A DNA stretch of 64,000 nucleotides, from assembly GCF_001641085.1 (NCBI RefSeq), contig NZ_LXIE01000004.1, forward strand, positions 1-64,000, written 5' to 3'. The first letter of the stretch is position 1. Every line of letters begins with the position of its first letter. This document shows positions 1 through 57,535 of the stretch, piece after piece. The stretch comes from Aequorivita soesokkakensis (GTDB lineage: Bacteria; Bacteroidota; Bacteroidia; Flavobacteriales; Flavobacteriaceae). The notes under the pieces are model-generated. The model saw only the letters and a program-made list of their open reading frames with translations. It searched no databases and was not told where the DNA came from. A program made the translations under genes and the position numbers.

Positions 1-28
1 TTCATTATTCATTATTCATTCATTAAAC
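1..28. repeat. heptanucleotide array upstream of the ABC-F gene
   Basis: Words ttcatta, ttcatta, ttcattc follow each other at exact 7-nt spacing from base 1, ending a short distance before the promoter of the first gene. The array may extend left of the window. It is one of a family of period-7 arrays at gene boundaries here. Confidence 0.6.
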
Positions 29-36
29 ATTTACAG

Positions 37-44
37 TACTTTTG
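37..44 (+). promoter_or_regulatory. Bacteroidetes-type -7 element for the ABC-F gene
   Basis: TACTTTTG matches the Bacteroidetes -7 consensus TAnnTTTG and lies 15 nt before the GTG start at 60. No convincing -33 box is visible because the heptanucleotide array occupies that position. Confidence 0.5.
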
Positions 45-59
45 CCGAAAATTTAAACT

Positions 60-1934
60 GTGAATTACCTTTCAGTAGAAAATATCTCCAAATCCTTCGG
101 GATGCGGGTTTTGTTTGAAAATATTTCCTTTGGAATAAACGAAGGACAAAAAATAGGTTTCGTTGCCAAAAACGGAACGGGGAAAACTTCCCTTCTTAAT
201 ATTATTGCCGGAAACGACAAGGCCGATACGGGAAATGTGGTTTTCAGAAAAGGCTTAAAAATTGCCTATCTGCCACAGGAACCAGATTTGGATCCGAAAC
301 TAACGGTGGAACAAACTATTTTTTCTTCAGACAATCCCATTCTGAAAATAATTGAAAATTACGAACACGCCATTGAAAATCCAGATGATTCCGAAACCTA
401 CCAAAAGGCATTCGACGCTATGGATGCGCATCACGCTTGGGATTTTGAGACTCGCTACAAACAGATTCTTTTCAAATTAAAGTTGGAAGACTTGCACGCC
501 AAAGTGGGCAACCTCAGTGGCGGACAGAAAAAACGTTTGGCATTGGCAAATGCACTTTTAACTACTCCAGATTTGTTGATAATGGATGAGCCCACCAACC
601 ACTTGGATCTTGAAATGATTGAGTGGCTGGAAAATCTTTTCGCAAAGGAAAACTTCACTCTTTTTATGGTTACGCACGACCGTTATTTCTTGGAACGCGT
701 TTGTAATGAAATTGTAGAATTGGATGAGGGAACGCTTTACAGCTATAAAGGAAATTACAGTTATTATTTGGAGAAACGCGACGCCCGAATAGAAAACGAA
801 GCCACGGAAACTGGCAAGGCGAAGCAACTTTTCAAAAAGGAATTGGAGTGGATGCGCCGCCAACCCAAAGCGCGAACCACTAAAAGCAAAAGCCGAATCG
901 ACGATTTCCACGAAATAAAGGACCGTGCCAGCAAACGCCGAAACGATCACCAAGTTCAACTTGAATTAAACATGGAGCGCATGGGCACCAAGGTTGTGGA
1001 ACTTCACAAAATTTCAAAATCGTTTGGCGAGAAAGTGCTTTTGGATAAGTTTGAATACAACTTTAACCGTGGGGAAAGAGTGGGAATTATCGGAAAGAAC
1101 GGAACAGGAAAATCCACATTTTTGAATATTCTTACGGGAGCTTTAAAACCCGATTCTGGGAAAGTGGTCGTAGGTGAAACAGTTCAGTTTGGATACTACA
1201 CCCAAGCCGGAATCAATATTAAGGAAGGCCAAAAAGTAATAGATGTTATTCGCGAATACGGCGATTATATCCCATTGAAAAAAGGTCGGCAGATTTCTGC
1301 TTCGCAGCTTTTGGAACGCTTTCTTTTCGACCCGAAGAAACAATACGATTTTGTTGAAAAACTGAGCGGTGGCGAACGTAAACGCCTTTATTTGTGTACC
1401 GTTCTTATCAAGAATCCAAACTTTTTAATTCTTGATGAGCCTACGAACGATTTAGATATTGTTACGCTAAATGTTTTGGAGAGTTTCCTTTTGGATTTTC
1501 CCGGCTGTCTGTTGGTTGTGAGCCACGACCGGTATTTTATGGATAAAATTGTGGATCACCTTTTTGTTTTTAGAGGGGATGCCGAAGTGGAAGATTTCCC
1601 CGGAAACTATTCAGATTTTAGGGCTTATGAAGATAGCAATGTGCAGGAAAAACGTGAAGCGAGTGAAGCTACTCCAAAGGTTAAAAAAGATTGGAAACAA
1701 GACTCCAGCCCCGCAAAACTTAATTATAACGAGCAAAAGGAGTACAACAAGCTAGAAAAGGAAATAGCCAATCTTGAAAAAAATCGGGAGGAACTTCAGA
1801 ATAAATTTGCCACTGAAAACTGGGATGGCGCCGAGATTGACAAACAATCCATAAAGCTACAGGAGATTATGGATAAAATTGAAGCGAAGGAAGAACGTTG
1901 GTTTGAGCTTTCAGCGAAAATGGAGGAATTCTGA
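60..1934 (+). CDS. ABC-F family ATPase (Uup/EttA-like)
   Basis: A 624-residue soluble protein with two ABC domains and no membrane segment, the layout of ABC-F translation factors that act at the ribosomal E site. Domain 1 has Walker A AKNGTGKT (residues 36-43, with Ala for the usual first Gly), LSGGQ (152-156) and LLIMDEPTNHLD (172-183). An ABC-F linker rich in Arg and Lys follows (about 240-330). Domain 2 has GKNGTGKS, LSGGE and ILDEPTNDLD. Residues about 555-624 form a charged coiled coil like the DNA-binding C-terminal tail of Uup. The start is GTG; the reading MNYLSVENISKSFG fits the family start, and a TAnnTTTG box lies just upstream. Its stop codon lies in a heptanucleotide array shared with the next gene. 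Family is sure; the exact ABC-F subgroup is inferred from the C-terminal coiled coil. Confidence 0.93.
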   Translation: MNYLSVENISKSFGMRVLFENISFGINEGQKIGFVAKNGTGKTSLLNIIAGNDKADTGNVVFRKGLKIAYLPQEPDLDPKLTVEQTIFSSDNPILKIIENYEHAIENPDDSETYQKAFDAMDAHHAWDFETRYKQILFKLKLEDLHAKVGNLSGGQKKRLALANALLTTPDLLIMDEPTNHLDLEMIEWLENLFAKENFTLFMVTHDRYFLERVCNEIVELDEGTLYSYKGNYSYYLEKRDARIENEATETGKAKQLFKKELEWMRRQPKARTTKSKSRIDDFHEIKDRASKRRNDHQVQLELNMERMGTKVVELHKISKSFGEKVLLDKFEYNFNRGERVGIIGKNGTGKSTFLNILTGALKPDSGKVVVGETVQFGYYTQAGINIKEGQKVIDVIREYGDYIPLKKGRQISASQLLERFLFDPKKQYDFVEKLSGGERKRLYLCTVLIKNPNFLILDEPTNDLDIVTLNVLESFLLDFPGCLLVVSHDRYFMDKIVDHLFVFRGDAEVEDFPGNYSDFRAYEDSNVQEKREASEATPKVKKDWKQDSSPAKLNYNEQKEYNKLEKEIANLEKNREELQNKFATENWDGAEIDKQSIKLQEIMDKIEAKEERWFELSAKMEEF

Positions 1935-1974
1935 ATTCAGAATTCAGAATTATGAATTATGAATTATGAATTAT
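1926..1974. repeat. heptanucleotide array bridging stop and start codons
   Basis: Seven consecutive 7-nt words, gaattct, gaattca (twice) and gaattat (four times), run from inside the last codons of the ABC-F gene to the ATG of the methyltransferase gene. The stop TGA (1932-1934) and the start ATG (1973-1975) are both in phase with the repeat. Each gaattat unit creates an ATGA in a new reading frame. Confidence 0.9.
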
Positions 1975-2755
1975 GATACACCAATCAAAAAGCTACATAA
2001 AATTCATTCGGCTTGCCAAAAACAAACACGGCGTGCATTCGCCATTTGTATATGATTTGGTGACGAAGTGTTTTAATGATAAAACGAAATATCACGAATA
2101 CGAAATTCTGAAATCGCACAGAAAAGCTTTGCGAAGCGATACTTCAACTTTTGAAATGAAGGATTTTGGTCAAGGTTCGCGAGTTTTTAAAGGCAGCGCA
2201 CGAAAAGTTTCCGCGGTTTTGAAAAATGCGGGAATGCGCAAAAAACGCCAACGACTACTATTCCGCTTGTCGAAATATTTCAACAGTGAAAATATTTTGG
2301 AACTTGGGACTTCACTGGGTTTGGGAACGGTTGCGCTTTCACTTTCGAATGAATTTGCCGCCATTAATACCGTGGAAGGTTGCCCGAACACCTTACGTAA
2401 AGCACAGGATTATTTTGAAAAATTCAACTTGCACAATATTCAGATACACCAAAAGCTTTTCAGAGAATTTCTTCAATCCCGAAATTTCGGGACAGAAAAA
2501 TTCGATTTAATATTTATAGACGGCGACCACAATGGAGAAAGGACTTTCGGGTATTTCAATTCCCTTTTAAAAAATATACACAATGATTCTATAATTATTT
2601 TTGATGATATTTATTGGAGCAAGGATATGACTGAGGCTTGGCAGAAAATAATCGCAAATGAAAAAGTAACGGTAAGCATCGATACTTTTCAATGGGGGCT
2701 GGTTTTTTTCAGAAAGGAACAACCCAAGCAGCATTTTGTGATAAGGATTGGTTGA
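1973..2755 (+). CDS. class I SAM-dependent methyltransferase (O-methyltransferase-like)
   Basis: A 260-residue protein with a Rossmann methyltransferase core. Motif I is ILELGTSLGLGTVAL near residue 105, followed by an acidic loop (NTVEGCPNT) and FDLIFIDGDHNGERT near residue 180, then a DDIYW segment. The GDH motif and DD pair resemble cation-dependent O-methyltransferases. The N-terminal 90 residues are basic. The ATG at 1973 is the last unit of a heptanucleotide array and there is no other in-frame start nearby. No Shine-Dalgarno is seen, which is usual in this group. Substrate is unknown. It probably shares a transcript with the ABC-F gene. Confidence 0.8.
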   Translation: MIHQSKSYIKFIRLAKNKHGVHSPFVYDLVTKCFNDKTKYHEYEILKSHRKALRSDTSTFEMKDFGQGSRVFKGSARKVSAVLKNAGMRKKRQRLLFRLSKYFNSENILELGTSLGLGTVALSLSNEFAAINTVEGCPNTLRKAQDYFEKFNLHNIQIHQKLFREFLQSRNFGTEKFDLIFIDGDHNGERTFGYFNSLLKNIHNDSIIIFDDIYWSKDMTEAWQKIIANEKVTVSIDTFQWGLVFFRKEQPKQHFVIRIG

Positions 2756-2770
2756 TGGTTGATGGTTGAT
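2750..2770. repeat. heptanucleotide array at the methyltransferase stop codon
   Basis: Three perfect copies of ggttgat begin 3 nt before the TGA stop (2753-2755) and continue into the intergenic region. Each copy repeats TGATGG in another frame. Confidence 0.85.
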
Positions 2771-2789
2771 GGTAAAGATGACTTTTTGC

Positions 2790-2810
2790 TTTAAACTTTC
2801 AACTTTGAAC
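2790..2810. repeat. heptanucleotide array tttNaac in the promoter region
   Basis: Words tttaaac, tttcaac and tttgaac at 7-nt spacing. The last one carries the TTTG that is the best -33 candidate for the next gene. Confidence 0.65.
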
Positions 2811-2830
2811 TAAATTTGTAACAACCCACG

Positions 2831-2838
2831 TACCTTTG
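2831..2838 (+). promoter_or_regulatory. -7 element of the LolD-like ATPase gene
   Basis: TACCTTTG matches TAnnTTTG. A TTTG at 2804-2807 is 23 nt upstream, at the long end of the accepted -33/-7 spacing. The start codon is 30 nt downstream. Confidence 0.55.
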
Positions 2839-2868
2839 CGTCCTATTAAATCATATTGAAAAACGTCT

Positions 2869-3573
2869 ATGAGCTTAGTTATTAAAATCAGAAACATCAC
2901 AAGGGATTTTCCGCTTGGGAATGAAGTGGTTAAAGTTTTAAAAGGAATTGATCTGGACATTGAACGCGGCGAATACGTTGCATTGATGGGGCCTTCCGGT
3001 TCTGGAAAATCTACTTTAATGAACCTTTTGGGATGTTTGGACACGCCAACTTCCGGTACTTACGAGCTAAACGGAAGTAATGTAAGCAATATGACCGATG
3101 ACGAGTTGGCTGAAATTCGGAATAAGGAAATCGGCTTCGTCTTTCAAACCTTTAACCTTCTCCCTCGAACCACTGCGCTGGAAAATGTTGCTTTGCCCAT
3201 GATTTATGCGGGTGCCTCAAAAAGCGAAAGAACTGAACGTGCAAAACAAGTATTGACCGATGTTGGCCTTGCAGACCGAATGGACCACAAACCCAACCAA
3301 CTTTCAGGAGGACAGCGCCAGCGTGTTGCCGTGGGCCGGGCTTTGGTAAACCACCCTTCCATCATTTTGGCAGATGAGCCAACAGGAAATTTAGATTCTA
3401 AAACTTCAGATGAAATAATGAATCTTTTCAATGAAATTCACAAAGCAGGAAACACAGTGATTTTAGTAACCCACGAAGAGGAAATTGCAGAAAATGCACA
3501 CAGAATTATTCGGCTTCGGGATGGTGTTGTTGAGAGCGATACGAAAAAAAGTCTCAGTTTGCAGTCGCAGTAG
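2869..3573 (+). CDS. ABC transporter ATP-binding protein, LolD/MacB family
   Basis: A 234-residue single ABC domain with GPSGSGKST (Walker A, about residue 41), a [10 protein letters not shown] segment typical of the LolD/MacB/FtsE group, [18 protein letters not shown] (Q-loop region), [15 protein letters not shown] (signature) and [12 protein letters not shown] (Walker B). Members energise MacB-type mechanotransmission or lipoprotein-release permeases from the cytoplasmic side. No permease gene is adjacent, so its partner must be elsewhere. The stop codon falls in a cagt-rich near-heptameric repeat (3555-3581). Confidence 0.9.
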
Positions 3574-3581
3574 GCAGTTTT
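3555..3581. repeat. imperfect heptanucleotide cagt array at a stop codon
   Basis: Words cagtttg, cagtcg, cagtagg, cagtttt: spacing 7, 6, 7 nt. The TAG stop of the LolD-like gene (3571-3573) is inside. It matches in style the longer cagt array at 3850-3898. Confidence 0.55.
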
Positions 3582-3673
3582 TCTGGGTGAGTTTGTGAAT
3601 TAATTAACCTTGTTTCTTGAATTAGAAAAAAGATATTTCTAACCTCTAATTTCATATTTCCCATTTCGTATTT

Positions 3674-3681
3674 TATCTTTG
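3674..3681 (+). promoter_or_regulatory. -7 element of the 58-residue membrane protein gene
   Basis: TATCTTTG (TAnnTTTG) lies only 4 nt before the ATG at 3686, so the transcript would be nearly leaderless. It lies in a region phased by ttt every 7 nt (3650-3684). Confidence 0.45.
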
Positions 3682-3685
3682 AAAT

Positions 3686-3862
3686 ATGAATTTAGACCTT
3701 TCAAATCCATTGCTTTTAATAATTGGCGGAATACTTCTTTTAGCCATTCTCTATTTTTGGAATAAAAGAAATGCTACAAATCAGCGGCAACGCAGAACGA
3801 AAAATTTCAGAAACAGTTATTACGAACGGAAAAAGGATCGGGAGCAGGACAGTACGCAGTAG
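3686..3862 (+). CDS. 58-residue single-span membrane protein
   Basis: A short reading frame giving a hydrophobic segment (NPLLLIIGGILLLAILYFW, about residues 7-25) followed by a strongly basic and aromatic tail (many Arg, Lys, Tyr, Gln). This looks like a signal-anchored small protein with a cytoplasmic basic tail. Support: its own TAnnTTTG box and a stop codon placed at the start of a heptanucleotide array, as for larger genes here. No family is recognised. Confidence 0.5.
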   Translation: MNLDLSNPLLLIIGGILLLAILYFWNKRNATNQRQRRTKNFRNSYYERKKDREQDSTQ

Positions 3863-3898
3863 TCAGTACGCAGTAGTCAGTACGCAGTGGACAGTTTA
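3850..3898. repeat. heptanucleotide cagt array, seven units
   Basis: Words cagtacg, cagtagt, cagtacg, cagtagt, cagtacg, cagtgga, cagttta at exact 7-nt spacing, so the basic two-word unit is 14 nt. The TAG stop of the small membrane protein gene is in the second word. Confidence 0.9.
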
Positions 3899-3965
3899 AA
3901 AATTATTCTTTTTAGAAAAACTTCGTGTCTTAGCGCCTTTGCAAGAATTTTAAATCAGTTATTCG

Positions 3966-3973
3966 TAACTTTG
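3966..3973 (+). promoter_or_regulatory. -7 element of the adenosyltransferase gene
   Basis: TAACTTTG matches TAnnTTTG and is 39 nt before the ATG. A period-7 stretch lies between it and the start codon and so forms most of the 5' leader. Confidence 0.5.
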
Positions 3974-4015
3974 AAAAACAACAAACTTCAAACAATAAAC
4001 CACAAACTCTAAATG
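3974..4015. repeat. heptad-phased leader of the adenosyltransferase gene
   Basis: Six words, aaaaaca, acaaact, tcaaaca, ataaacc, acaaact, ctaaatg, share AAA at positions 3-5 and end exactly on the ATG. Only acaaact repeats exactly, so this is a degenerate array. Confidence 0.55.
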
Positions 4016-4585
4016 AAAATATATACCAAAACCGGCGATGCAGGCACTACTGCCCTTTTCGGCGGCACAAGAGTTTCCAAACACAACATTCGTATTGAAA
4101 GTTACGGTACGGTGGATGAGCTTAATTCGTATCTGGGGCTTATCCGCACTCAAGAAATTGACCCTCGCAGCAAAGAAATTTTGGTTCATATTCAAGATAG
4201 GCTGTTTACACTTGGAGCTATTTTAGCAACCGATCCTGCGAAAGCCACACTGAAAAGCGGAAAGGAACGTTTAAATATTCCAAAAATTGACGAAGAAGAT
4301 ATCGAGCTCCTAGAAAAAGAGATGGACAGGATGAACGACTCCCTGCCACCAATGACGCATTTCATTTTGCCAGGTGGAAATTCTACCGTGTCATATTGTC
4401 ACATTGCCCGTACTGTCTGCCGCCGTGCAGAACGCCGTACTACGCTTTTAAATGAAAATGAACCCATTGACGAAAAGGTGCTGATGTATTTAAACCGACT
4501 ATCTGACTACCTCTTTGTGCTGGCACGAAAGTTGTCTAAAGACACCAACGCAGAAGAGACACAATGGATTCCTAAGAAGCTGTAA
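4013..4585 (+). CDS. cob(I)yrinic acid a,c-diamide adenosyltransferase, PduO type
   Basis: A 190-residue protein starting MKIYTKTGDAGTTALFGG, the ATP-binding N-terminus of PduO/MMAB-type ATP:cob(I)alamin adenosyltransferases. YGTVDELNSYLGL and the late CRRAERR and LNRLSDYLFVLAR segments are the conserved helices of the trimeric helical bundle. It transfers adenosyl from ATP to cob(I)alamin in the cytoplasm, making adenosylcobalamin. The MeaB GTPase at 19743-20822 serves the same cofactor, so a methylmalonyl-CoA mutase probably exists elsewhere in the genome. Confidence 0.93.
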   Translation: MKIYTKTGDAGTTALFGGTRVSKHNIRIESYGTVDELNSYLGLIRTQEIDPRSKEILVHIQDRLFTLGAILATDPAKATLKSGKERLNIPKIDEEDIELLEKEMDRMNDSLPPMTHFILPGGNSTVSYCHIARTVCRRAERRTTLLNENEPIDEKVLMYLNRLSDYLFVLARKLSKDTNAEETQWIPKKL

Positions 4586-4696
4586 ATTTCTTCCAAAACA
4601 ATAATTTTAAATAATTGATTTTCAGTTGTTTAAATAAGTTCTTTAAAATATAGCAGAAATAATTAAGATTTTTCTTGACTTTTTGATCTAAAAAAT

Positions 4697-4704
4697 TACT
4701 TTTG
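4697..4704 (+). promoter_or_regulatory. -7 element of the DUF2795 gene
   Basis: TACTTTTG (TAnnTTTG) with a TTG at 4674-4676 20 nt upstream as the -33 element. The ATG is 23 nt downstream. One of the best-formed promoters in the window. Confidence 0.6.
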
Positions 4705-4727
4705 CAGAAAATTAAACCTATAGTGCT

Positions 4728-4949: not shown

Positions 4950-4985
4950 TCCCAAGATTTTGGGAAAAATTAAAAAATAATATAA

Positions 4986-5012
4986 AAAGTCTCTTTTACG
5001 AGGCTTTTTTTT
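4986..5012 (+). terminator. rho-independent terminator of the DUF2795 gene
   Basis: Short stem agtctc / gaggct with loop ttttac and one G-T pair, followed by a run of eight T. Confidence 0.6.
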
Positions 5013-5042
5013 ATTTAAAAAGTATCGGAAAAGTCGTCCTGA

Positions 5043-5069: not shown

Positions 5070-5143
5070 ATTGGCAACGAAAAACATAATATAAATTGAC
5101 AAAACTGTGTTGCGCTGCAGCACATCAAAATAACACACACATC

Positions 5144-29542: not shown

Positions 29543-29570
29543 GAGTTATGAGTTATGAGTTCGGAGTTAT
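29543..29570. repeat. heptanucleotide array gagttat
   Basis: Words gagttat, gagttat, gagttcg, gagttat at 7-nt spacing, ending 8 nt from the start codon of the minus-strand 76-residue gene. Read on the minus strand each unit ataactc holds a TAA. Confidence 0.85.
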
Positions 29571-29592
29571 GATTTTTAAAAACTATTCTCTT

Positions 29593-29613
29593 TTCGCTAT
29601 TCGCTAATCGCTA
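29593..29613. repeat. heptanucleotide array ttcgcta at the MATE stop codon
   Basis: Words ttcgcta, ttcgcta, atcgcta at 7-nt spacing. On the minus strand the units read tagcgaa/tagcgat. One of these TAG trinucleotides (29597-29599) is the stop codon of the MATE gene. Confidence 0.85.
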
Positions 29614-30985
29614 CTTCCTGCCTAATTAATTTCTTCGAAAGATAATTAAATCTGATGAATAACATAATGCCACTAGCGGAAAGCCCTGCCAACAAGCCTA
29701 TCCAAATGCCCATACTTTCCAGGGAAGTTTCCATACTTAAGTAATACGAAATAGGGAAACCAATTATCCAATACGCTATAAAGCAAATCACTGTTGGTAT
29801 TTTCACATCTTGCATTCCGCGCAGCGCTCCCAGAGCTACTACTTGCAAGGCATCGGTAAATTGAAATATTGCTGCAATAATCAAAAGCTGTGCAGCTATG
29901 GAAACCACTTCGTGATTGTCGGCAAAATCGGTTATACTGTTGTAATCGAGAAATATTTTCGGCAATTCGCCATTAAAAAGTATAAATCCAATGGCAAAAA
30001 TCAACGATAAAATAGACGTTAATAACACAATGGAAATGGCCACGCGCCGCAATTCCCTAAAGTTTTTCAATCCTTTTTGGTTACCAACGCGTATCATTGC
30101 CGCAACGCTAAATCCCATTGCCACCATAAAAGTCATAGAAGCTAGGTTCAGTGCTATTTGGTTTGCAGCCTGTGGATTCTTCCCAAGAATTCCGGAAAGC
30201 CATATTGCGGAAGTGAAAATAGCCACCTCAAAAAACATCTGCATCGCCGAAGGAAAGCCGAGATTTAAAAGCTTTTTAAGCATCGCTTTGCTGAGAGTGA
30301 AAATTTTTATACTTGTAACAAAAAACCGCGATTTCTCTTTTCTGCTTAATAAATACCACAAATAAAGCACCATCACAACCCTAGAAGCCAAAGTGCCAAT
30401 GGCAGCTCCAACAACGCCAAGTTCTGGCGCACCAAACTTTCCGAAGATAAACATATAGTTAAGCAGCACATTCACCAAATTCGCCACAATAGTAGCATAC
30501 ATTGGGAAGCGCGTCATAGACATACCATCGCTGAATTGCTTAAAACCCTGAAAAATAATCAAAGGCACAAGCGAAGCCGCAACCAACGTTAAATAGGGCA
30601 TCGCCAAATCAACAACTTCGGGTGGCTGTTTCATTACATACATCAGCGGTTTGGCGGCCATCACCATTCCGAAAAGCATCAAACCAAGCACGATACACAA
30701 AAACAGTCCGTGCTTAAAGGAAGATTTCCCCTTCTCGCGATTGCCTTCGCCATCGGCTTCGGCAACAAGCGGCGTGATTGCCGTAGAAAAACCAACCCCC
30801 AAACTCATCGCCACAAACATAAAACTGTTCCCTAGCGAAACCGCAGCAAGCTCAGCAGTACCCAGTTGGCCCACCATAATATTATCAACCAGCGCAACCA
30901 CTTGGTGGCCCAACATGCCCAAAATTACGGGTGTTGCCAATTTTATGTTGAATTTAAACTCTTTAGAATAATCGCTAAATGCCAA
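29597..30985 (-). CDS. MATE family efflux transporter
   Basis: A 462-residue inner-membrane protein with twelve hydrophobic segments in two related halves. The first half starts LATPVILGMLGHQVVALVDNIMVGQLG, here noted by its PVILGMLG and VDNIMVGQLG motifs; the second half starts LKKLLNLGFPSAMQMFFEV. This is the NorM/DinF-type multidrug or toxin extrusion fold driven by Na+ or H+. The C-terminal codons run into a heptanucleotide array. Substrate is unknown. Confidence 0.9.
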   Translation of the reverse strand: MAFSDYSKEFKFNIKLATPVILGMLGHQVVALVDNIMVGQLGTAELAAVSLGNSFMFVAMSLGVGFSTAITPLVAEADGEGNREKGKSSFKHGLFLCIVLGLMLFGMVMAAKPLMYVMKQPPEVVDLAMPYLTLVAASLVPLIIFQGFKQFSDGMSMTRFPMYATIVANLVNVLLNYMFIFGKFGAPELGVVGAAIGTLASRVVMVLYLWYLLSRKEKSRFFVTSIKIFTLSKAMLKKLLNLGFPSAMQMFFEVAIFTSAIWLSGILGKNPQAANQIALNLASMTFMVAMGFSVAAMIRVGNQKGLKNFRELRRVAISIVLLTSILSLIFAIGFILFNGELPKIFLDYNSITDFADNHEVVSIAAQLLIIAAIFQFTDALQVVALGALRGMQDVKIPTVICFIAYWIIGFPISYYLSMETSLESMGIWIGLLAGLSASGIMLFIRFNYLSKKLIRQEVAISE

Positions 30986-31075: not shown

Positions 31076-31567
31076 ATGAAAAATAGCCAACAATTGGCAA
31101 ACCGGTTTCGGGAAGTAATTCTTAACGGCACTTTTATAGCCAATACCAATTATAAAGACCAACTGCAAAACCTACCGCTGCAAATTGCCCAAACAAAAGT
31201 TGGCGATTTAAACACCATTTCAATACTTGCGCAGCACATCCATTATTATATAAAAGGGGTGGCTACTGTTTTTAAAGGGGGAAACTTAGAAATTAAAGAT
31301 GCCTATAGTTTTGATTTTCCTCCGTTAACTTCTGAAAATGAATGGAAAAATTTCTTGGATACTTTCTTTATGGATGCCGAGGAATTTGCAAATCTCGTAG
31401 CGCAACTTTCAGAAAACAATTTGAACAATGCATTTACAGATGAAAAATACGGAACTTTTCAAAGAAATATTGATGCAATGATAGAACACTGCTACTATCA
31501 TTTAGGTCAGATTGTTTTGATAAAAAAATTGATAGCCAACAACCATCAACTAACAACCATCAACTAA
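31076..31567 (+). CDS. DinB-like/DUF1572 helical bundle protein
   Basis: A 163-residue helical protein. A late segment, DAMIEHCYYHLGQIVLIKKL, has the HxxxH pattern that binds metal in DinB-type bundles, with an earlier His pair at LAQHIHYYIKG. Flavobacterial proteins of this type are often listed as DUF1572 or DinB-like; activity is unknown. The last residues NNHQLTTIN are encoded by the heptanucleotide array at 31540-31581, so the C-terminus is repeat-derived. Confidence 0.7.
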   Translation: MKNSQQLANRFREVILNGTFIANTNYKDQLQNLPLQIAQTKVGDLNTISILAQHIHYYIKGVATVFKGGNLEIKDAYSFDFPPLTSENEWKNFLDTFFMDAEEFANLVAQLSENNLNNAFTDEKYGTFQRNIDAMIEHCYYHLGQIVLIKKLIANNHQLTTIN

Positions 31568-31581
31568 CAACCAACAACTAA
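31540..31581. repeat. heptanucleotide array caacNNN bridging stop and start codons
   Basis: Six words caaccat, caactaa, caaccat, caactaa, caaccaa, caactaa at exact 7-nt spacing. It contains the TAA stop of the DinB-like gene (31565-31567) and ends immediately before the ATG of the ABC exporter gene (31582). Confidence 0.92.
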
Positions 31582-33417
31582 ATGCCCCGTCCAATCCCAA
31601 AATCCATAACAGATAAAGAAAAAACCAGCGTTCGCGATTCCTTCAAAGCGCTGAAAACCATACCGCGCTTCTTTAAGGAAATATACCGCGCCAGCCCAAA
31701 ACTGTTTTTTGTGAACGCCTTCAGCCGTTTGCTCAACGCCTTCACGCCCGTAGTAATCCTTTGGGTGGGAAAAATGATTATTGATGAAATAATCCTCCAA
31801 GTTTCCTTAGAAGACAAAGATTTTACAATGCTTTGGAATTACGTAATCATCGAATTTTCCGTTGCCGTACTTTCAGATTTGTTGGGAAGATTGATAAACC
31901 TAACGGACGGACTGCTGGGCGATTTATACAGCAACGCCTCTTCCGAAAAAATAATCCGAAAAACCAGCGAGCTCACCATCGCCCAACTGGAAGACCCCGA
32001 ATTTTACGACAAACTGGAACGCGCCCGAACCCAAACCAACAGCCGGGTAGATTTAATGACCAACGCCTTGGGACAAGCAGAAAGCCTGATTTCTATGGTT
32101 TCGCTGATTGCGGGCTTGATTTATTTTGAACCTATTTTAATACTTATCTTGGTGCTCAGCATTATTCCTTCGTTTATAAATGAAGCGAAATTCAGCAGCA
32201 CCCGTTACTCTTTGGCGCGCAGTTGGACCGCCGAACGCCGCGAACTGGATTACCTTCGTTTCATCGGCGCCAACAACCAAACCGCTAAGGAAATCAAGCT
32301 TTTCGGTCTAACAGATTTTATCGCGGAACGCTTTAAAAACCTTTCAAACGACTATTACCTCATCAACAAAAAACTCTCGCTTAGGCAAAGTTTTTACGGT
32401 TCGCTTTTCAATATTCTCGGCGTGCTCAGTTATTACGGCGCCTATGTTTACATCATCCTGCGGGTGCTTACGGGCGTGATTACCATTGGGGAACTCACCT
32501 TCCTTTCCGGTTCCTTCAACCGTTTGCGCAACAATCTGCAGGGCTTCTTTTCGCGCTTTACCCGTATTTCCGAAAGCGCGCTTTACCTTCAGGATTATTT
32601 TGACTTTATCGATTTAACTGTAGAGCAAAATGCCGAAGCAAAAACGGCTATGCCCAAAACCATTAAAGAAGGTTTTCAGGTTAACAACCTACACTTCGCT
32701 TATGCTGGTAGCGAAACCGAAGTGCTAAAAGGCGTAACCTTTATCCTAAAAGCAGGCGAAAAAATGGCCTTTGTAGGCCAAAACGGCGCGGGAAAAACTA
32801 CGCTTATAAAACTCTTCCTCCGCTTTTACGAACCCACCCAAGGCGAAATACTTTTGGACGGCATCAACATAAACCAGTTTGATGTGGACGCCTACCGAAA
32901 ACGTTTTGGCGTCATCTTTCAGGACTTTTTTAAATATGAGTTTACCCTACGTGAAAACATAGCCGTGGGCAATATAGACCAAGTGCAGAACGACGAAGTA
33001 ATAAACTACGCCGCCAGCAAAAGCCTCGCGGAACAAGTGGTGACCGAAATGGCCGACGGGCTGGAACAACGCCTTGGCAGAAGGTTTTACAAAGGCACCG
33101 AACTAAGCGGCGGGCAGTGGCAAAAAGTGGCCCTGGCACGCGCCTATATGAAGGATGCCGATGTGATGGTGCTGGACGAACCCACCAGCGCGCTGGATGC
33201 CCAAGCAGAGTTTGATGTTTTTGAACGCTTTATTGCCCTCACCAAGGGCAAGACCAGCATTATTATTAGCCACCGCTTTAGCACCGTGCGCATGGCAGAC
33301 CGTATTTTGGTATTGCAAAACGGCCAAGTGCTGGAGCTGGGCACCCACGAAGCGTTAATGGCAAACCCAAAATTGTACTCTGAGTTGTTTAAGTTGCAGG
33401 CGGCGGGGTATCAGTAG
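31582..33417 (+). CDS. ABC exporter with fused permease and ATPase
   Basis: A 611-residue half-transporter. The N-terminal part (about 1-350) is a membrane domain whose first cytoplasmic helices are amphipathic and whose transmembrane segments include LLGRLINLTDGLLGDL and SLIAGLIYFEPILILILVLS. The C-terminal part is the ATPase: VGQNGAGKTTLIKLF (Walker A), LSGGQWQKVALARAY (signature), VMVLDEPTSALD (Walker B) and IIISHRFSTVR (H-loop). It works as a homodimer exporting lipids, peptides or drugs. Base composition is richer in C than its neighbours, unlike the AT-rich ATPase gene that follows. Confidence 0.9.
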   Translation: MPRPIPKSITDKEKTSVRDSFKALKTIPRFFKEIYRASPKLFFVNAFSRLLNAFTPVVILWVGKMIIDEIILQVSLEDKDFTMLWNYVIIEFSVAVLSDLLGRLINLTDGLLGDLYSNASSEKIIRKTSELTIAQLEDPEFYDKLERARTQTNSRVDLMTNALGQAESLISMVSLIAGLIYFEPILILILVLSIIPSFINEAKFSSTRYSLARSWTAERRELDYLRFIGANNQTAKEIKLFGLTDFIAERFKNLSNDYYLINKKLSLRQSFYGSLFNILGVLSYYGAYVYIILRVLTGVITIGELTFLSGSFNRLRNNLQGFFSRFTRISESALYLQDYFDFIDLTVEQNAEAKTAMPKTIKEGFQVNNLHFAYAGSETEVLKGVTFILKAGEKMAFVGQNGAGKTTLIKLFLRFYEPTQGEILLDGININQFDVDAYRKRFGVIFQDFFKYEFTLRENIAVGNIDQVQNDEVINYAASKSLAEQVVTEMADGLEQRLGRRFYKGTELSGGQWQKVALARAYMKDADVMVLDEPTSALDAQAEFDVFERFIALTKGKTSIIISHRFSTVRMADRILVLQNGQVLELGTHEALMANPKLYSELFKLQAAGYQ

Positions 33418-35783: not shown

Positions 35784-36092
35784 CTAACATACGTTACTAA
35801 AAATATAATATACATTACCAATTGCAACACATACAAAGGCAATCACAACTCCTGCAAAATCAATTACAACTCCTGCATAACCAATTGCAACTCCCGCAAA
35901 CCCATTTATATCTCCTGCAAACCCATTTACAACTCCCGCAAAGCACATTTCATCTTCTGCATAGCCAATTGTAATTCCTGCAAAATTAATTGTAACTTCT
36001 GCGTAACCAATTGCAAATCCTTTAAAACCAATTGCCCCACTATCGCGAGCGTACTGCTTATAGTATTGAAGAATAAACCTACTAAACACCAA
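35784..36092 (-). CDS. doubtful reading frame over the 21-bp repeats (heptapeptide repeat)
   Basis: A 102-residue frame on the minus strand runs through the whole 21-bp array and would encode ten seven-residue units with consensus [VI]-x-[IN]-G-[FY]-A-[GE]. Differences between units include synonymous changes (GCA/GCG, TAC/TAT, GGT/GGC), which hints at coding, but there is no ATG (TTG or GTG only), no promoter box and no signal peptide. Overlapping frames on both strands are also open. I treat it as unproven. Confidence 0.2.
   Translation of the reverse strand: MVFSRFILQYYKQYARDSGAIGFKGFAIGYAEVTINFAGITIGYAEDEMCFAGVVNGFAGDINGFAGVAIGYAGVVIDFAGVVIAFVCVAIGNVYYIFSNVC
35828..36037. repeat. 21-bp direct repeat array, about ten units
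   Basis: Anchor words ctcctgc/ctcccgc/cttctgc occur at 35849, 35870, 35891, 35912, 35933, 35954, 35975 and 35996, each exactly 21 nt apart, with degenerate units at 35828 and 36017. Each unit divides into three 7-nt words (ctcctgc, aaaacca, attgcaa). It fills most of the 529-nt gap between the ATPase and the lipoprotein gene; the rest of that gap holds the GCGAGCG hairpins and no clear gene. Confidence 0.9.
36039..36064. repeat. second GCGAGCG palindrome beside the 21-bp array
   Basis: actat and atagt pair around cgcgagcgtactgctt. It directly follows the repeat array and shares the cgcgagcgt core of the element at 35653. Confidence 0.5.
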
Positions 36093-42540: not shown

Positions 42541-42687
42541 ATGAAGAAAGTCCTTTTAGTAAGATCCATTCTTCTCACACTAAGTTATTCCCAAAATGAA
42601 TTGATTGTTCCTGGCATTTTAAATAGTAATCCAGATTTTACAAATTACTTTCACAAACGCATTGTAGTACTGGAGTTTAGTTTCTAA
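42541..42687 (+). pseudogene. remnant: signal peptide joined to an outer-membrane C-terminal strand
   Basis: A 48-codon frame reads a signal-like start (MKKVLLVRSILLTLSYSQN) followed by DFTNYFHKRIVVLEFSF and a stop. The end looks like the last beta-strand of an outer-membrane barrel (alternating pattern with final Phe). The simplest reading is a large internal deletion in an outer-membrane protein gene. A real 48-residue secreted peptide is the alternative. Confidence 0.35.
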
Positions 42688-42689
42688 AA

Positions 42690-42729
42690 ATCCAATCATC
42701 CAAAAATCTAACAATCCAAAAATCTACTT
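42690..42729. repeat. octanucleotide-phased repeat at a stop codon
   Basis: Words atccaatc, atccaaaa, atctaaca, atccaaaa, atctactt each start with ATC at 8-nt spacing. The last holds the stop codon of the minus-strand gene (42724-42726). Confidence 0.65.
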
Positions 42730-43056: not shown

Positions 43057-43166
43057 CTTTTCTGTTTATTTTATCGAAAAGTACAATTATATTTTTGGTA
43101 TTAAAAGTTGCTATAAAAAATACCGACCTCCTCCTTAAATTTAAAAAAAAATTAACCCGTATTTAC

Positions 43167-43221
43167 TTAAGGGATAATTAAGGGTTACTTAAGGTTTACT
43201 TAAGGTGTAATTAAGGTCAAT
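43167..43221. promoter_or_regulatory. five 11-bp direct repeats upstream of a promoter
   Basis: TTAAGG begins at 43167, 43178, 43189, 43200 and 43211, an exact 11-nt period; units read ttaagggataa, ttaagggttac, ttaaggtttac, ttaaggtgtaa, ttaaggtcaat. It lies 22-76 nt upstream of the TAACTTTG box at 43243, the place for an activator or repressor binding on one face of the helix. Confidence 0.8.
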
Positions 43222-52616: not shown

Positions 52617-52619
52617 ATT

Positions 52620-53171: not shown

Positions 53172-53205
53172 AGTAGCGTTTCTTTCAATTTTTTTCAGAA
53201 GGGAG

Positions 53206-53213
53206 CAAAAGTA
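53206..53213 (-). promoter_or_regulatory. promoter of the grpE-dnaJ operon
   Basis: On the minus strand TACTTTTG (TAnnTTTG) with TTGAC centred near 53235, spaced by about 21 nt, a well-formed Bacteroidetes promoter. The same bases also fit a sigma-54 -24/-12 pattern (53204-53219). Confidence 0.65.
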
Positions 53214-53292
53214 CTGCCATTTGTTCTAAATTGTCAAAATGTCACAGCAATTAATTTAGTATTTGTTTAAGAAAAATCATTTTGTTTAAGCA

Positions 53293-53300
53293 TATTTTTG
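53293..53300 (+). promoter_or_regulatory. -7 element of the YceI-like gene
   Basis: TATTTTTG matches TAnnTTTG, 25 nt before the ATG at 53326. Two direct copies of tttgtttaag lie at 53262 and 53281, one before and one overlapping the spacer. Confidence 0.5.
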
Positions 53301-53325
53301 CACTTCAAAACAAAAACCAATATCT

Positions 53326-53979
53326 ATGAAATCTACATTCTTAAAAATTACACTATTTACTTTTATTGCAGTGGGAGCAATTTCTTGCAAAAACACTGAG
53401 AAAGAAACGGAAACTGCGCTTGAGGAAGTTGCCGAAGCTACAGAAATGGCCAGCGAATATACTGTTGATACTGCCGCTTCACAAATTATGTGGGAAGGTT
53501 CAAAACCTACCGGAACGCATCACGGAACTATAAAACTTTCCTCTGGCACAATTCATTTGAATGAAGGAAAACCAGAAGCCGGAAACTTTGTGATTGATAT
53601 GAACTCTATCAATGATGAAGATTTGGAAGGAGACCAAAAAGCTAATTTGGAAGCACACTTAAAAGGTACTGCCGAAGGAAAAGAAGGCGATTTCTTTAAC
53701 GTGAAAGAATTTCCAACCGCAAAATTTGAAATGACAAGTCTTGAAAACAATATGGTGAAAGGAAACTTAACCATAAAAGACAAAACAAATGCTATTGAAT
53801 TCCCTGCAACTGTAACCATGGAAGGTGAGAAAATGATGCTGAAAAGCGAAGCTTTTGAATTGGACAGAACAAAGTGGGATGTAAACTACGGTTCAAAATC
53901 TATTTTCCCAAACCTGGGTGATAAATTTATTAATGATACAATGAAAATTACAGTTTCTTTAGTTGCTACAAAGTCATAA
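53326..53979 (+). CDS. YceI-like lipoprotein
   Basis: A 217-residue protein with a lipoprotein signal (AVGAISCKN, Cys near residue 22), an acidic linker and a YceI-type lipocalin barrel: YTVDTAASQIMWEGSKPTGT, HHGTIKLSSGTIHLNEGKPE, FVIDMNSINDEDLEG, then SLENNMVKGNLTIKDKT and FELDRTKWDVNYGSKS. YceI proteins bind long isoprenoids such as quinone precursors. It is likely anchored in the envelope. It ends in a strong terminator. Confidence 0.92.
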   Translation: MKSTFLKITLFTFIAVGAISCKNTEKETETALEEVAEATEMASEYTVDTAASQIMWEGSKPTGTHHGTIKLSSGTIHLNEGKPEAGNFVIDMNSINDEDLEGDQKANLEAHLKGTAEGKEGDFFNVKEFPTAKFEMTSLENNMVKGNLTIKDKTNAIEFPATVTMEGEKMMLKSEAFELDRTKWDVNYGSKSIFPNLGDKFINDTMKITVSLVATKS

Positions 53980-54000
53980 TCAAAGAAGAAAACAAAAGAA

Positions 54001-54032
54001 AGAGAGGCAGATTCTGCCTCTCTTTTTTTTTT
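54001..54032. terminator. bidirectional terminator
   Basis: Perfect 10-bp stem agagaggcag / ctgcctctct with loop att and T9 after, between the convergent YceI-like and TIGR01777 genes. Confidence 0.9.
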
Positions 54033-54939
54033 ACAATAAATCCTGCAGCGCGTTTTCAAGATTGTAAAACTTAAATTGGTACCCAAGTTGCTCAATTTTA
54101 TGGGAACTGACCAATTGTCCCTCCAAAACCAAAACAGACATTTCGCCCAATAAAAGTTTTAAAACAAAAGCAGAAATATTGGGAAGCCAAAGTGGACTTT
54201 CCAATTGCGATGCAATCAATTTGGTCATTTTTTTGTTTTGAACGGGGTTTGGAGCCACGGCATTAAATTTTCCTTCCAATTGATTTTTAAGTATAAACAT
54301 ATAAATCCCTATAATATCTTTAATGTGAATCCAAGATTGCCATTGCTCGCCACTTCCCAACGGCGCACCAACGCCTAGTTTAATTGGCTTTGCAATTTGT
54401 GGCAAAGCACCCTCATCTTTGGCAAGCACGATACCGGTGCGCACTTTGCTCACTTCCATTCCCAAATCTTTAAATTTCACGGCTTCAGCTTCCCAAGCAA
54501 CAACTACTTCCGCCAAGAATGTATTGTCAATTTCCAAATCCTCTTCGGTGTATAATCTAGTTTTTGAATTTGGATAAATATTTATTCCACTGGCCGAAAT
54601 GAAATGTTCAATATTATGATCTATCTTTTGGAGTGTTTCATAAAGAAGTTTCATTGATTCCACCCTACTATCAATAATAACTTTCTTATATTTTTTTGTC
54701 CAGCGTTTTGAAATTGAAGAACCAGCTAGATTAATTATAGCACTTACGCCGTGAAATGCTTTTTCATCAATCTCTTTTGTTTGGGGATTCCAGTAAAAAC
54801 CGTTATAATTTTCAGAATTTTCAATCTTTTCTTTACTGGTAGTAAAATAATTAACAGAAATTCCCTCGCGATGACATTGCTTTACCAATTCACTTCCAAT
54901 AAGTCCTGTGGCTCCTGTTATCAATACTTTATTGCTCAT
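54031..54939 (-). CDS. TIGR01777 family epimerase-like SDR protein (YfcH type)
   Basis: A 302-residue NAD(P)-binding protein from the ATG at 54939: MSNKVLITGATGLIGSELVK, followed by the family motif YNGFYWNPQTKEID, NLAGSSISKRWTKKYK and SGINIYPN in place of the usual YxxxK active site. GAPLGSGEQWQSWIHIKDI near residue 215 is the TIGR01777 signature. An in-frame ATG at 54975 would add 12 residues with no family match. Substrate is unknown; relatives are linked to cell division and photosystem stability in other lineages. Confidence 0.88.
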   Translation of the reverse strand: MSNKVLITGATGLIGSELVKQCHREGISVNYFTTSKEKIENSENYNGFYWNPQTKEIDEKAFHGVSAIINLAGSSISKRWTKKYKKVIIDSRVESMKLLYETLQKIDHNIEHFISASGINIYPNSKTRLYTEEDLEIDNTFLAEVVVAWEAEAVKFKDLGMEVSKVRTGIVLAKDEGALPQIAKPIKLGVGAPLGSGEQWQSWIHIKDIIGIYMFILKNQLEGKFNAVAPNPVQNKKMTKLIASQLESPLWLPNISAFVLKLLLGEMSVLVLEGQLVSSHKIEQLGYQFKFYNLENALQDLL

Positions 54940-55002
54940 ACTTTTTAAATTTAAATATTCAAAAGTGAACTGCAAAGACCCTTAACGGAAGATTGTGAAA
55001 TC

Positions 55003-55044
55003 GGGAAGTGGGAAGTGGAAATTTGGGATTTGGAATTTGGGATT
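55003..55044. repeat. heptanucleotide array between two minus-strand genes
   Basis: Six words at 7-nt spacing: gggaagt, gggaagt, ggaaatt, tgggatt, tggaatt, tgggatt. It lies in the 161-nt gap between mnmD and the TIGR01777 gene. Confidence 0.85.
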
Positions 55045-55100
55045 TTACAAAATTTAAATCTTTACCGCCCAATGTATTTAGCTATGATGAATATTGACAA

Positions 55101-55766
55101 TCACTTTGTACCTCTCAACATTTCCTTTTTCCCCGGCGGTCCGGCAAGTCTTTCTACTTTAAATCCGACCGCTTGCATGGCTCGACGTGCATTTCCGTTT
55201 GCGGCATAGGTTACTAAAGCCCCATTTGGTATTAGGGCATTGTGCATTTTTTGGAAAATTTCCTCCGTCCAAAGTTCGGGCTGCACGCGGATTCCGAAAG
55301 CATCAAAATAGATAAGGTCAAAAGTATTTTCAGCAGTTATTTCAGAAAAGAATTTTTGTTGTTTTGTGAGGTTGAAATTTTCAGAAATAATCGTTTTTTC
55401 TTCCCAAGGAGATGTATGCAATTGTAAAAATATTTCTTCCGAAGCCTTTAAAAGCGAAGTGTAATTGAGTGTTTTAATTTCCTCAAGAATTAAAGGATAC
55501 GCTTCAACTCCCGTATAATTTACTTTTAGTTTATTTTTTTCGCTTTCCAAAAAAGTAAGAAAAGCATTCAAACCCGTGCCGAAACCAATTTCCATGATAG
55601 AAATTTCAGTTTTAGAATTTTCAGAAAGCCAATAATAAAGCCCTTCCTTTATAAAAACGTGAAGGGCTTCAGCTATCGCTCCGTGCTTGGAATGATACTG
55701 CTCATCCCATTCCGAAATATGTAATGTATATGAACCGTCGCCGGTTTTTAATAATGTGCGTTTCAA
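55101..55766 (-). CDS. mnmD: tRNA (mnm5s2U34)-methyltransferase MnmD
   Basis: A 221-residue SAM-dependent methyltransferase without the FAD domain of MnmC. Motif I is EIGFGTGLNAFLTFLE (about residue 60), then NYTGVEAYPLILEE, FDLIYFDAFGIRVQPELWT and LVTYAANGNARRAMQAVGF, the DAF..PELW and YAANG motifs of MnmC1/MnmD. It completes the wobble-uridine modification mnm5s2U in tRNAs for Lys, Glu and Gln. It is 3 nt downstream of the DUF4920 gene. Confidence 0.9.
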   Translation of the reverse strand: MKRTLLKTGDGSYTLHISEWDEQYHSKHGAIAEALHVFIKEGLYYWLSENSKTEISIMEIGFGTGLNAFLTFLESEKNKLKVNYTGVEAYPLILEEIKTLNYTSLLKASEEIFLQLHTSPWEEKTIISENFNLTKQQKFFSEITAENTFDLIYFDAFGIRVQPELWTEEIFQKMHNALIPNGALVTYAANGNARRAMQAVGFKVERLAGPPGKKEMLRGTK

Positions 55767-55769
55767 ATA

Positions 55770-56285
55770 TTACTGTTTTTCCACTTCAGGAATAAGTACG
55801 CCGTCTGCCTCAAAAGCCAAAGTGCGTTTAGGCTCTGTGATTGCAGCTATTTCCTCAGCAGATTTTCCTCCGTCTTCAGCATAATGGCGCTGATCTTCAA
55901 CGCTCATTTCTTCAACATAGGCTTTTCCGGAAACTATAACTTCCTGTCCGGCTATGTCTTTTGGCATAAAAAATCCATAATCCTTAAAACGAACCATGGT
56001 TTCGGCATCGCCCATTTCAAGGTTCATCCAGCATCCTTTTTTCTGGCAAACATCTTTTACAGTGGAAGCAAATTTCACATTTACGGTATCGCCAGGCTTA
56101 AGATTTTTATACTTTTCGGTCATTTCAGTATTTGTCATGACATTATCGTCAGAAATTTCAGTACCAAAAGATTGGTAGTTCATCGCAACTTCTTCAACTT
56201 CGGCAGTAGGTTTTTCTTCAGTCTTTTCGTTTTTACAGCTTGTTATAATTGCCATCAGGGAAAATACAAATAGAATTTTTTTCAT
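55770..56285 (-). CDS. DUF4920 family lipoprotein
   Basis: A 171-residue protein with a lipoprotein signal (LMAIITSCKN, Cys near residue 17), a Glu-rich linker and a DUF4920 beta domain: VKFASTVKDVCQKKGCWMNLE with its two Cys, and MVRFKDYGFFMPKDIAGQEV. The KGCWM motif resembles metal- or thiol-active sites in related periplasmic proteins. Function is unknown. It is the first gene of the pair with mnmD. Confidence 0.85.
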   Translation of the reverse strand: MKKILFVFSLMAIITSCKNEKTEEKPTAEVEEVAMNYQSFGTEISDDNVMTNTEMTEKYKNLKPGDTVNVKFASTVKDVCQKKGCWMNLEMGDAETMVRFKDYGFFMPKDIAGQEVIVSGKAYVEEMSVEDQRHYAEDGGKSAEEIAAITEPKRTLAFEADGVLIPEVEKQ

Positions 56286-56396
56286 TTTGAACGGTTTAAT
56301 AAATTATTGATTGGTAACACATTGCAATTTTAATGATTTTTTGAATTTTTTATGGTTTAAATTTTACCTATTTTTACCAAATAAATATTTCTTTTC

Positions 56397-57467
56397 ATGA
56401 ATTCTTCCACCAAGCAAAAATTAGATATACAAAAAGCTGAATCCTCCAGAATTGGGCAAGTTGATTTTAACAACCTCACCTTTGGAAGCACTTTTAGTGA
56501 CCACATGTTTGAGTGTGATTATAAAGATGGCGAGTGGCAAAATCCAACAATTAAGCCTTATGGCCCATTGACTATTTCGCCCGGAGCAAAGGTTTTTCAT
56601 TATGGCCAAGCAGTTTTTGAGGGAATGAAAGCCTATAAAGATGATGATGGAAAGGTATGGCTTTTTAGACCTGAGGAAAATTTTAACCGAATAAACAAGT
56701 CATCAAAAAGGATGGCAATTCCCGAATTTCCAAAAGATATATTTTTTGAGGCATTAACTGAACTTGTAAAAATTGACAAGGAATGGGTAAAAAAAGGATT
56801 GGGCAATTCACTGTACATTCGTCCTTTTGTTATGGCTACACAGGTTGGGGTCTCCGCGTCTCCTTCCACAGAATATAAATTTATGATTTTGATGTCGCCA
56901 GCGCAAGCTTATTATACGGGCGATGTGAAAGTAGAAATTGCAGAGCATTATAGCCGTTCCGCAAATGGCGGTGTGGGCGCTGCAAAAGCTGCGGGTAATT
57001 ATGGCGCACAGTTTTTCCCAACAAATTTGGCCCGTGAAAAGGGTTTCCAACAGGTTATTTGGACTGATGCCAGCAAGCACGAATATTTAGAGGAAGCTGG
57101 CACCATGAACGTTTTTTTCCGTGTGAACGATACACTTTTAACAGCCCCAATTAGTGATAGAATTTTGGACGGGGTGACCCGAAAAAGCGTGATTGCCCTT
57201 GCCAAAAGAGACAATATAACGGTAGAAGAAAGACCTGTTTCGGTTTCAGAAATTGTGGAAGCCGCAAAGAATGGAAACCTTAAGGAAATATTTGGCGCTG
57301 GAACCGCTGCGGTAATAAGCCCGGTGAGCGCTTTTAGTTATCACGATACAGTTTATGATCTTGAACATCAAGATAACGGTTTTGCTATGCGGTTCAAAAA
57401 AGAACTGATGGATATTCAGCACAATCGTAGCGAAGATCCATTTGGATGGAGATATGAAGTTTTGTAA
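56397..57467 (+). CDS. ilvE: branched-chain amino acid aminotransferase
   Basis: A 356-residue class IV (fold type IV) PLP enzyme. YGQAVFEGMKAYKDDDGKVW and WLFRPEENFNRINKSSKRM are conserved in the N-terminal domain; the Schiff-base Lys is in GAAKAAGNYGAQFFPTNLA; LEEAGTMNVFFR and ISDRILDGVTRKS bind PLP and substrate. It makes or degrades Leu, Ile and Val by exchange with glutamate. Monocistronic and ended by a long hairpin. Confidence 0.95.
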   Translation: MNSSTKQKLDIQKAESSRIGQVDFNNLTFGSTFSDHMFECDYKDGEWQNPTIKPYGPLTISPGAKVFHYGQAVFEGMKAYKDDDGKVWLFRPEENFNRINKSSKRMAIPEFPKDIFFEALTELVKIDKEWVKKGLGNSLYIRPFVMATQVGVSASPSTEYKFMILMSPAQAYYTGDVKVEIAEHYSRSANGGVGAAKAAGNYGAQFFPTNLAREKGFQQVIWTDASKHEYLEEAGTMNVFFRVNDTLLTAPISDRILDGVTRKSVIALAKRDNITVEERPVSVSEIVEAAKNGNLKEIFGAGTAAVISPVSAFSYHDTVYDLEHQDNGFAMRFKKELMDIQHNRSEDPFGWRYEVL

Positions 57468-57489
57468 AAAAACTTAAACTCCAATACTT

Positions 57490-57535
57490 AAAATTCCAAA
57501 TTTCAAAAACTTATCTTTTTGGAATTTGGAATTTT
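57490..57535. terminator. 20-bp bidirectional terminator hairpin
   Basis: Arms 57490-57509 and 57516-57535 pair over 20 bp with one G-T pair around loop cttatc, between the convergent ilvE and nucleotide pyrophosphohydrolase genes. The right arm contains two heptanucleotide tggaatt words (57520-57533) and touches the minus-strand stop codon. Confidence 0.85.

What the first reader, a model, noticed from the sequence alone, without database searches (positions are those of the whole stretch)
1..57533. A window-wide rule: boundary arrays with different words but the same 7-nt period
At least eleven places show it (1-21, 1926-1974, 2750-2770, 2790-2810, 3850-3898, 3974-4015, 29543-29570, 29593-29613, 31540-31581, 55003-55044, 57520-57533). 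The words are unrelated (gaattat, ggttgat, cagtacg, gagttat, ttcgcta, caactaa, gggaagt), yet the period is shared and many arrays touch a stop or start codon. A shared period without a shared sequence points to a mechanism or selection on length, not spread of one element. I know of heptameric tandem repeats in cyanobacteria; I do not know a described equivalent at gene junctions in Flavobacteriaceae.
Basis: partly seen in the sequence, partly recalled or inferred. Interest (0 to 1): 0.72.

Follow-up and report, generated by a model that had tools for sequence, protein, structure and literature searches.

The report
Seven-base repeats expanding between bacterial genes
In this bacterium and its close relatives, gaps between genes carry short tandem repeats that are usually seven bases long but spell a different word at most places; comparing species shows them growing on the spot in steps of seven, a known kind of repeat expansion that is unusually strong in this one genus.

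Summary
8 of the 11 listed places pass a lag-7 or lag-14 threshold. In about 400 kb of the genome, intergenic lag-7 arrays number 21 against 0.0 expected. In the genus their density is 43 times higher between called genes than inside them. The excess sits in discrete arrays; once these are cut out lag 7 is at expectation. Words are mostly unrelated (22 necklaces in 26 arrays). Arrays lean on stop codons (31 of 79 against 17.9 by chance), not on starts (14 against 18.4).

It marks this genus among those sampled: 16 genomes of other family genera give 3 lag-7 arrays in 142 kb.

Most likely mechanism: expansion in place by slippage in whole heptads. Between the same flanks, relatives hold 13, 20 and 62 nt at one junction, and 15, 36 and 57 at another. 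Arrays recur at orthologous junctions (0.49 against 0.15 expected) while most words change.

The class is known (heptameric simple repeats; Xanthomonas, cyanobacteria, some Bacteroidetes). New here: many words under one period, and a sharp contrast with sister genera. Why seven stays open.

The parts
1..20 (.). heptad array TTCATTA, 2.9 copies, at the first base of contig C4
1926..1976 (.). heptad array GAATTCT/GAATTCA/GAATTAT, 7.3 copies; overlaps the stop of 60-1934 and the start of 1973-2755; folds modestly (z -2.7)
2749..2773 (.). heptad array TGGTTGA, 3.6 copies, over the stop of 1973-2755
2789..2811 (.). degenerate heptads TTTAAAC/TTTCAAC/TTTGAAC; pairs with 2749-2773 in a predicted hairpin (2745-2815, z -6.5)
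3850..3895 (.). 14-nt array CAGTACGCAGTAGT with CAGT every 7 nt
3974..4015 (.). degenerate heptads with AAAC core, up to the start of 4013-4585; below my threshold
29543..29570 (.). heptad array GAGTTAT, about 4 copies, past the stop of the MATE gene 29597-30985(-)
29586..29613 (.). heptad array TTCGCTA over the stop of the MATE gene; arrays at this junction in 8 of 10 genus genomes compared
31536..31581 (.). 14/7-nt array CAACCAT CAACTAA over the end of 31076-31567 up to the ATG of 31582-33417; array also in 2 of 3 other genomes sharing the called junction, with other words
55003..55045 (.). heptad array GGGAAGT to TTTGGGA, inside the gap between two minus-strand genes
57489..57536 (.). 21-pair hairpin between convergent genes; the 2.4-copy heptad TTTGGAA (57518-57534) is its 3' arm

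Best explanation
Each array is a local tandem expansion. A chance pair of similar heptads, often at the end of a gene and just past its stop codon, gains and loses whole 7-nt units by slipped-strand mispairing in replication. Copies spread and mutate together, so the word drifts while place and period stay. Purifying selection removes arrays from genes and thins them in divergent promoter regions, so they survive where DNA is least constrained. Something heritable makes this far more productive in this genus than in the sister genera sampled. Shown: step size at two junctions, conserved flanks, word change at fixed places, placement, contrast with other genera. Inferred: that the event is replication slippage and that selection shapes placement. 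Unknown: what sets seven.
For: Growth between fixed flanks: 13 nt in G018, 20 in G005, 62 in G017 at one junction; 15 in G018, 36 in G010, 57 in G017 at another. 98 arrays in 221 kb intergenic against 14 in 1.36 Mb coding; arrays in 63 of 638 tandem, 10 of 147 convergent, 10 of 194 divergent junctions; at stops 31 of 79 against 17.9. No background lag-7 signal after arrays are cut out. Variable positions sit side by side in the heptad (59 arrays, autocorrelation -0.056 against -0.167, 0 of 500 permutations), as expected if mispairing needs a contiguous match. Same-junction words agree to one mismatch in 22 of 105 pairs, different-junction words in 22 of 904. Tandem-duplication gaps of 4 nt or more between relatives: 4 nt 2, 5 nt 1, 7 nt 5, 8 nt 1, 21 nt 1, 26 nt 1. 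The four single-contig genus genomes sampled (G001, G002, G016, G017) carry arrays, so draft assembly is not the cause.
Against: Indels in general show no preference for 7 (98, 87, 70 gaps of 6, 7, 8 nt), and only 5 of the 87 7-nt gaps are tandem duplications. Slippage alone does not explain why 7 beats 8 and 9. In the 58 loci from other Bacteroidota 7 hardly leads (lags 7, 8, 11: 15, 12, 10), so seven is not a general optimum. No within-strain length change could be measured. Recurrence at the same junctions exceeds all four placement nulls (0.49 against 0.11 to 0.21); inheritance and permissive sites can explain it, but it would also fit selection.
Confidence: 0.77

Rival explanations
1. The arrays are functional spacers or RNA elements: a 7-nt period of any word at gene ends is selected, for instance for termination, mRNA stability or binding of a repeat-reading protein.
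For: Arrays recur at orthologous junctions with different words (0.49 against 0.15 length-weighted, 0.21 without divergent junctions), 8 of 10 at the MATE junction. Two window places fold strongly (z -7.5, -6.5).
Against: Most words are not kept. Over 91 arrays inverted matches are barely above shuffled (6.1 against 5.8 nt) and below direct ones (6.9). No Rfam family in the window. Relatives lack arrays at the same junctions (for example 6 of 8 at the junction after 4013-4585).
Confidence: 0.12
2. A mobile or copied repeat element that seeds heptads at many sites.
For: One word (AAATTCC) is at 4 of 26 own-genome arrays, and similar word pairs are 8% against 4.0 and 4.5%.
Against: Different-junction words are no closer than shuffled words (3.43 against 3.40); flanks at the two junctions measured are intact and differ by multiples of 7.
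Confidence: 0.04
3. Not replication slippage but another local route, such as recombination between copies or template switching at hairpins, with the same outcome.
For: Some junctions hold heptads on both arms of a hairpin (for G017 and G023, for 2745-2815).
Against: Growth begins from about two copies, short for homologous recombination (own knowledge); hairpins are not general.
Confidence: 0.07

Closest known systems
Heptameric long simple sequence repeats of prokaryotes (Mrazek et al. 2007; not held, known here through PMC4692102 and PMC4679880 passages)
   Same: Seven is the most abundant unit in most genomes of that survey; slippage tied to polymerase contact length was proposed
   Different: Here dense arrays mark one genus against 16 other sampled genera of its family, growth in heptads is seen at orthologous sites, and the word changes at a fixed place
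GGGAATC and GGGGA(C/T)T repeats of Xanthomonas and Nostoc (PMC4692102; passages and Discussion read)
   Same: Heptads, intergenic, close to ORFs, rare between divergent ORFs, between the same genes in two species with varying length and sequence
   Different: One G-quadruplex-forming word family there; many words of mean G+C 0.29 here
TAACTGA direct repeats of Beggiatoaceae, cyanobacteria and five Bacteroidetes (PMC4679880; passages and section 12 read)
   Same: Intergenic heptads; other heptamer repeats noted beside them in Gramella, Aequorivita and Elizabethkingia
   Different: One fixed word studied, mostly just before start codons; here TAACTGA is one word among many (an array in G001) and stops are favoured
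Prokaryotic satellites (PMC6749651; passages read)
   Same: Some of the most abundant bacterial families derive from heptamers and are thought to arise locally as duplication errors
   Different: Grouped there by sequence; here sequences hardly group

Membership tests
Heptameric simple sequence repeats (slippage class) | tandem unit of 7 nt in excess over other units | tested here: met
   intergenic lag 7: 73 against 2 (one shuffle); lag 8: 14, lag 9: 7, lags 4 to 6: 0, 1, 1
Heptameric simple sequence repeats (slippage class) | mainly outside coding sequence | tested here: met
   density ratio 43
Heptameric simple sequence repeats (slippage class) | length differs by whole units between relatives at one site | tested here: met
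   two junctions measured: 13/20/62 and 15/36/57
Heptameric simple sequence repeats (slippage class) | length instability within a strain | not testable with these tools
   one genome per species is held
GGGAATC-type G-quadruplex repeats | G-rich unit able to form a quadruplex | tested here: not met
   mean word G+C 0.29; 77% of 26 words lack G or C; folding as quadruplex itself was not tested
TAACTGA direct repeats | one fixed word | tested here: not met
   22 necklaces in 26 arrays
Mobile repeat family | shared sequence at many sites | tested here: not met
   3.43 against 3.40 mismatches for shuffled words; one word at 4 of 26 is the exception

The most novel reading that the evidence does not exclude
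A single heritable difference in the replication or repair machinery of this genus sets a 7-nt slippage step that works on any word, so the genus has dense heptads and its sister genera do not; comparing their genes would then identify what measures seven bases.
Probability: 0.3. Interest if true: 0.72.

Novelty: new variant of a known kind. Interest (0 to 1): 0.45.

Why it matters
Why heptamers are favoured among bacterial repeats has lacked an answer. A genus that makes them from many words, next to genera of the same family that hardly do, gives a natural comparison to find the cause. The arrays could also serve as typing markers, and 2 of 10 contig starts looked at lie in arrays, so they may break assemblies.

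Tried and rejected
General 7-nt periodicity of intergenic DNA: rejected, no excess after arrays are cut out. Helical phasing (7 as a third of 21): not supported, lag 14 (34) exceeds lag 21 (19). A 7-nt bias of indels in general: not seen. Missing mismatch repair: a MutS match in 35 of 35 genomes, 34 over the cut-off. Y-family polymerase: in 27 of 27, copy numbers overlap. Both tests are of presence only. Known RNA families: none in the window at gathering score. Suppression of short units as the cause: runs at lags 2 to 5 are depleted in the genus, but lags 2 to 4 clearly and lag 5 weakly also in 14 heptad-poor family genomes. Hairpins as a general feature: not borne out. Genus name: not obtained; no locus of the genus was listed in the SecA scan, whose note says near records may be left out.

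Limits. Genes were called by a home-made model in scripts, so starts are rough. Thresholds differ: searches use mismatch penalty 2 and score 11; penalty 1 and score 15. One search used one shuffle. The printout was cut. The split of the 80 SecA loci into 22 'Flavobacteriaceae' and 58 others was set by locus number from their titles and is rough. In one search one junction pattern missed G010; one search measured it with other flanks, so lengths differ by 2. G010 holds N letters in some stretches.

Full report
Observation. I read all 11 stretches. Seven pass a lag-7 score of 11 and one more passes at lag 14. Exact lag-7 runs of 12 or longer number 5, against 0.05 in 20 Markov resamplings. Two of the three that fail are degenerate. 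The third, 57520-57533, is the 3' arm of a strong hairpin between convergent genes.

Genome and genus. In about 400 kb (window plus 17 stretches) intergenic lag-7 arrays number 21 against 0.0 in 5 resamplings, lag-14 11, lag-21 12; coding lag-7 number 5 against 0.8. In stretches of 14 genomes of the genus, with a looser score, lag 7 gives 73 against 2 in one shuffle, lag 8 gives 14, lag 9 gives 7, and lags 4, 5, 6 give 0, 1, 1; coding lag 7 gives 11 against 1. At the stricter score 12 of 14 genus genomes have intergenic lag-7 arrays. The two without, G015 and G016, show 1 in 5.4 kb and, in a larger sample, 8 in 29.3 kb at the looser score.

Beyond the genus. Sixteen genomes, one for each of 16 other genera of the family: 3 lag-7 arrays in 142 kb intergenic, in 2 of 16; one of these, G061, has more arrays of 11 nt. 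Eleven genomes from other families of the order: no intergenic lag-7 array, though G025 has one at lag 14 and one at lag 21. Eighty SecA loci across Bacteroidota: 14 lag-7 arrays in 5 of 22 loci that I labelled Flavobacteriaceae, 15 in 10 of 58 others, where lags 8 and 11 come close with 12 and 10. E. coli, 100 kb: none at lag 7. So heptads occur here and there across the phylum, without a clear lead of seven outside the family, and are dense in this genus.

Placement. 98 arrays in 221 kb intergenic, 14 in 1.36 Mb coding. Arrays lie in 63 of 638 tandem, 10 of 147 convergent and 10 of 194 divergent junctions. Of 79 arrays in tandem junctions, 31 touch the stop against 17.9 by random placement, and 14 touch the start against 18.4. 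At 31536-31581 the array encodes the end of one protein and runs to the next start.

Words. 26 own-genome arrays give 22 necklaces; AAATTCC occurs 4 times. Pairs within one mismatch are 8%, against 4.0% for letter-shuffled words and 4.5% for random intergenic heptamers. Variable positions within the heptad sit side by side more than chance.

Growth in place. At the junction after the cobalamin adenosyltransferase gene (4013-4585, family), the stretch between the same two flanks is 13 nt in G018, 20 in G005 and 62 in G017. At another junction it is 15 in G018, 36 in G010 and 57 in G017. The differences are 7, 42, 21 and 21. Relatives without repeats there keep outer sequence but lack the seed (G000, G019, G004 at the first; G005 at the second). 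I measured only these two junctions in this way.

Hot junctions. In 64 junctions found in three or more genomes, 39 of 339 instances of 12 nt or more carry arrays. Given an array, another genome has one in 118 of 241 ordered pairs (0.49), against 0.15 for length-weighted and 0.21 for length-weighted placement without divergent junctions; none of 1000 permutations reached it in any of four nulls. Words at one junction agree to one mismatch in 22 of 105 pairs, against 22 of 904 for different junctions. The MATE junction has arrays in 8 of 10 genomes with several words. I read this as inheritance plus drift at permissive sites; selection is not excluded.

Period. In the genus, runs at lags 2 to 5 are fewer than expected, lag 6 is near expectation, and lag 7 is the shortest with an excess (75 runs of 12 or more against 0.5; lag 8: 13 against 1.0). 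Lags 2 to 4 are also depleted in 14 heptad-poor family genomes, which have no lag-7 run of 12 or more. After arrays are cut out lag 7 is at expectation.

Structure. Many junction folds that I could see are near resampled energy (printout cut). Over 91 arrays, the longest inverted match averages 6.1 nt against 5.8 resampled. Two window places do fold strongly.

Literature. PMC4692102 (passages; Discussion) and PMC4679880 (passages; section 12) say that heptamers are over-represented in many prokaryotes and that a 2007 study proposed slippage tied to polymerase contact length; that 2007 paper is not held. PMC4692102 describes arrays mostly kept between the same genes with changing length and sequence in two Xanthomonas, under-represented between divergent ORFs. 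PMC4679880 notes mixed heptamers in Gramella, Aequorivita and Elizabethkingia. PMC12699852 (passages) finds some 6 to 9 bp repeats highly enriched in prokaryotic phyla. PMC4060949 (passages) finds short units suppressed. In the listings of five searches I saw no report of word-independent heptads marking one genus; the library lacks most subscription papers.

Verdict. Real, strong, and of a known kind. The most likely mechanism is slippage in 7-nt steps, with purifying selection shaping where arrays survive. The contrast between genera and the cause of seven remain open.

Noticed in passing
window 1-20; L017 1-18: 2 of 10 contig starts looked at lie inside heptad arrays, which suggests that arrays break the assembly.
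   Followed up: partly
window 43162-43217 and 42686-42726: Arrays of other periods: 11 nt (TTTAATTAAGG, 5.1 copies) and 8/16 nt.
   Followed up: no
window 35813-36035: A 21-nt/63-nt repeat inside a minus-strand ORF (35784-36092, TTG start) that reads as seven-residue repeats such as GFAGVVI and GYAGVVI.
   Followed up: partly
window 3550-3578; L065 from about 3071: A 13-nt repeat at the end of the ABC gene (AGTCGCAGTAGGC); the same junction in G023 holds many copies of a related 13-nt unit, AGTCGCAGTTGAC.
   Followed up: partly
L120 7598-8423: About 800 bp of successive heptad arrays with different words upstream of SecA in Winogradskyella costae.
   Followed up: no
G010:C15:663792-666354: MutS matches in two pieces below the cut-off in one genus genome; the same contig has two stops inside the ABC gene, so sequence errors are possible.
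   Followed up: no
window 57489-57536: Hairpin between convergent genes whose arms hold heptads in some relatives (AAATTCC type) and another word in others (ATCCAAAAC type), by eye.
   Followed up: partly
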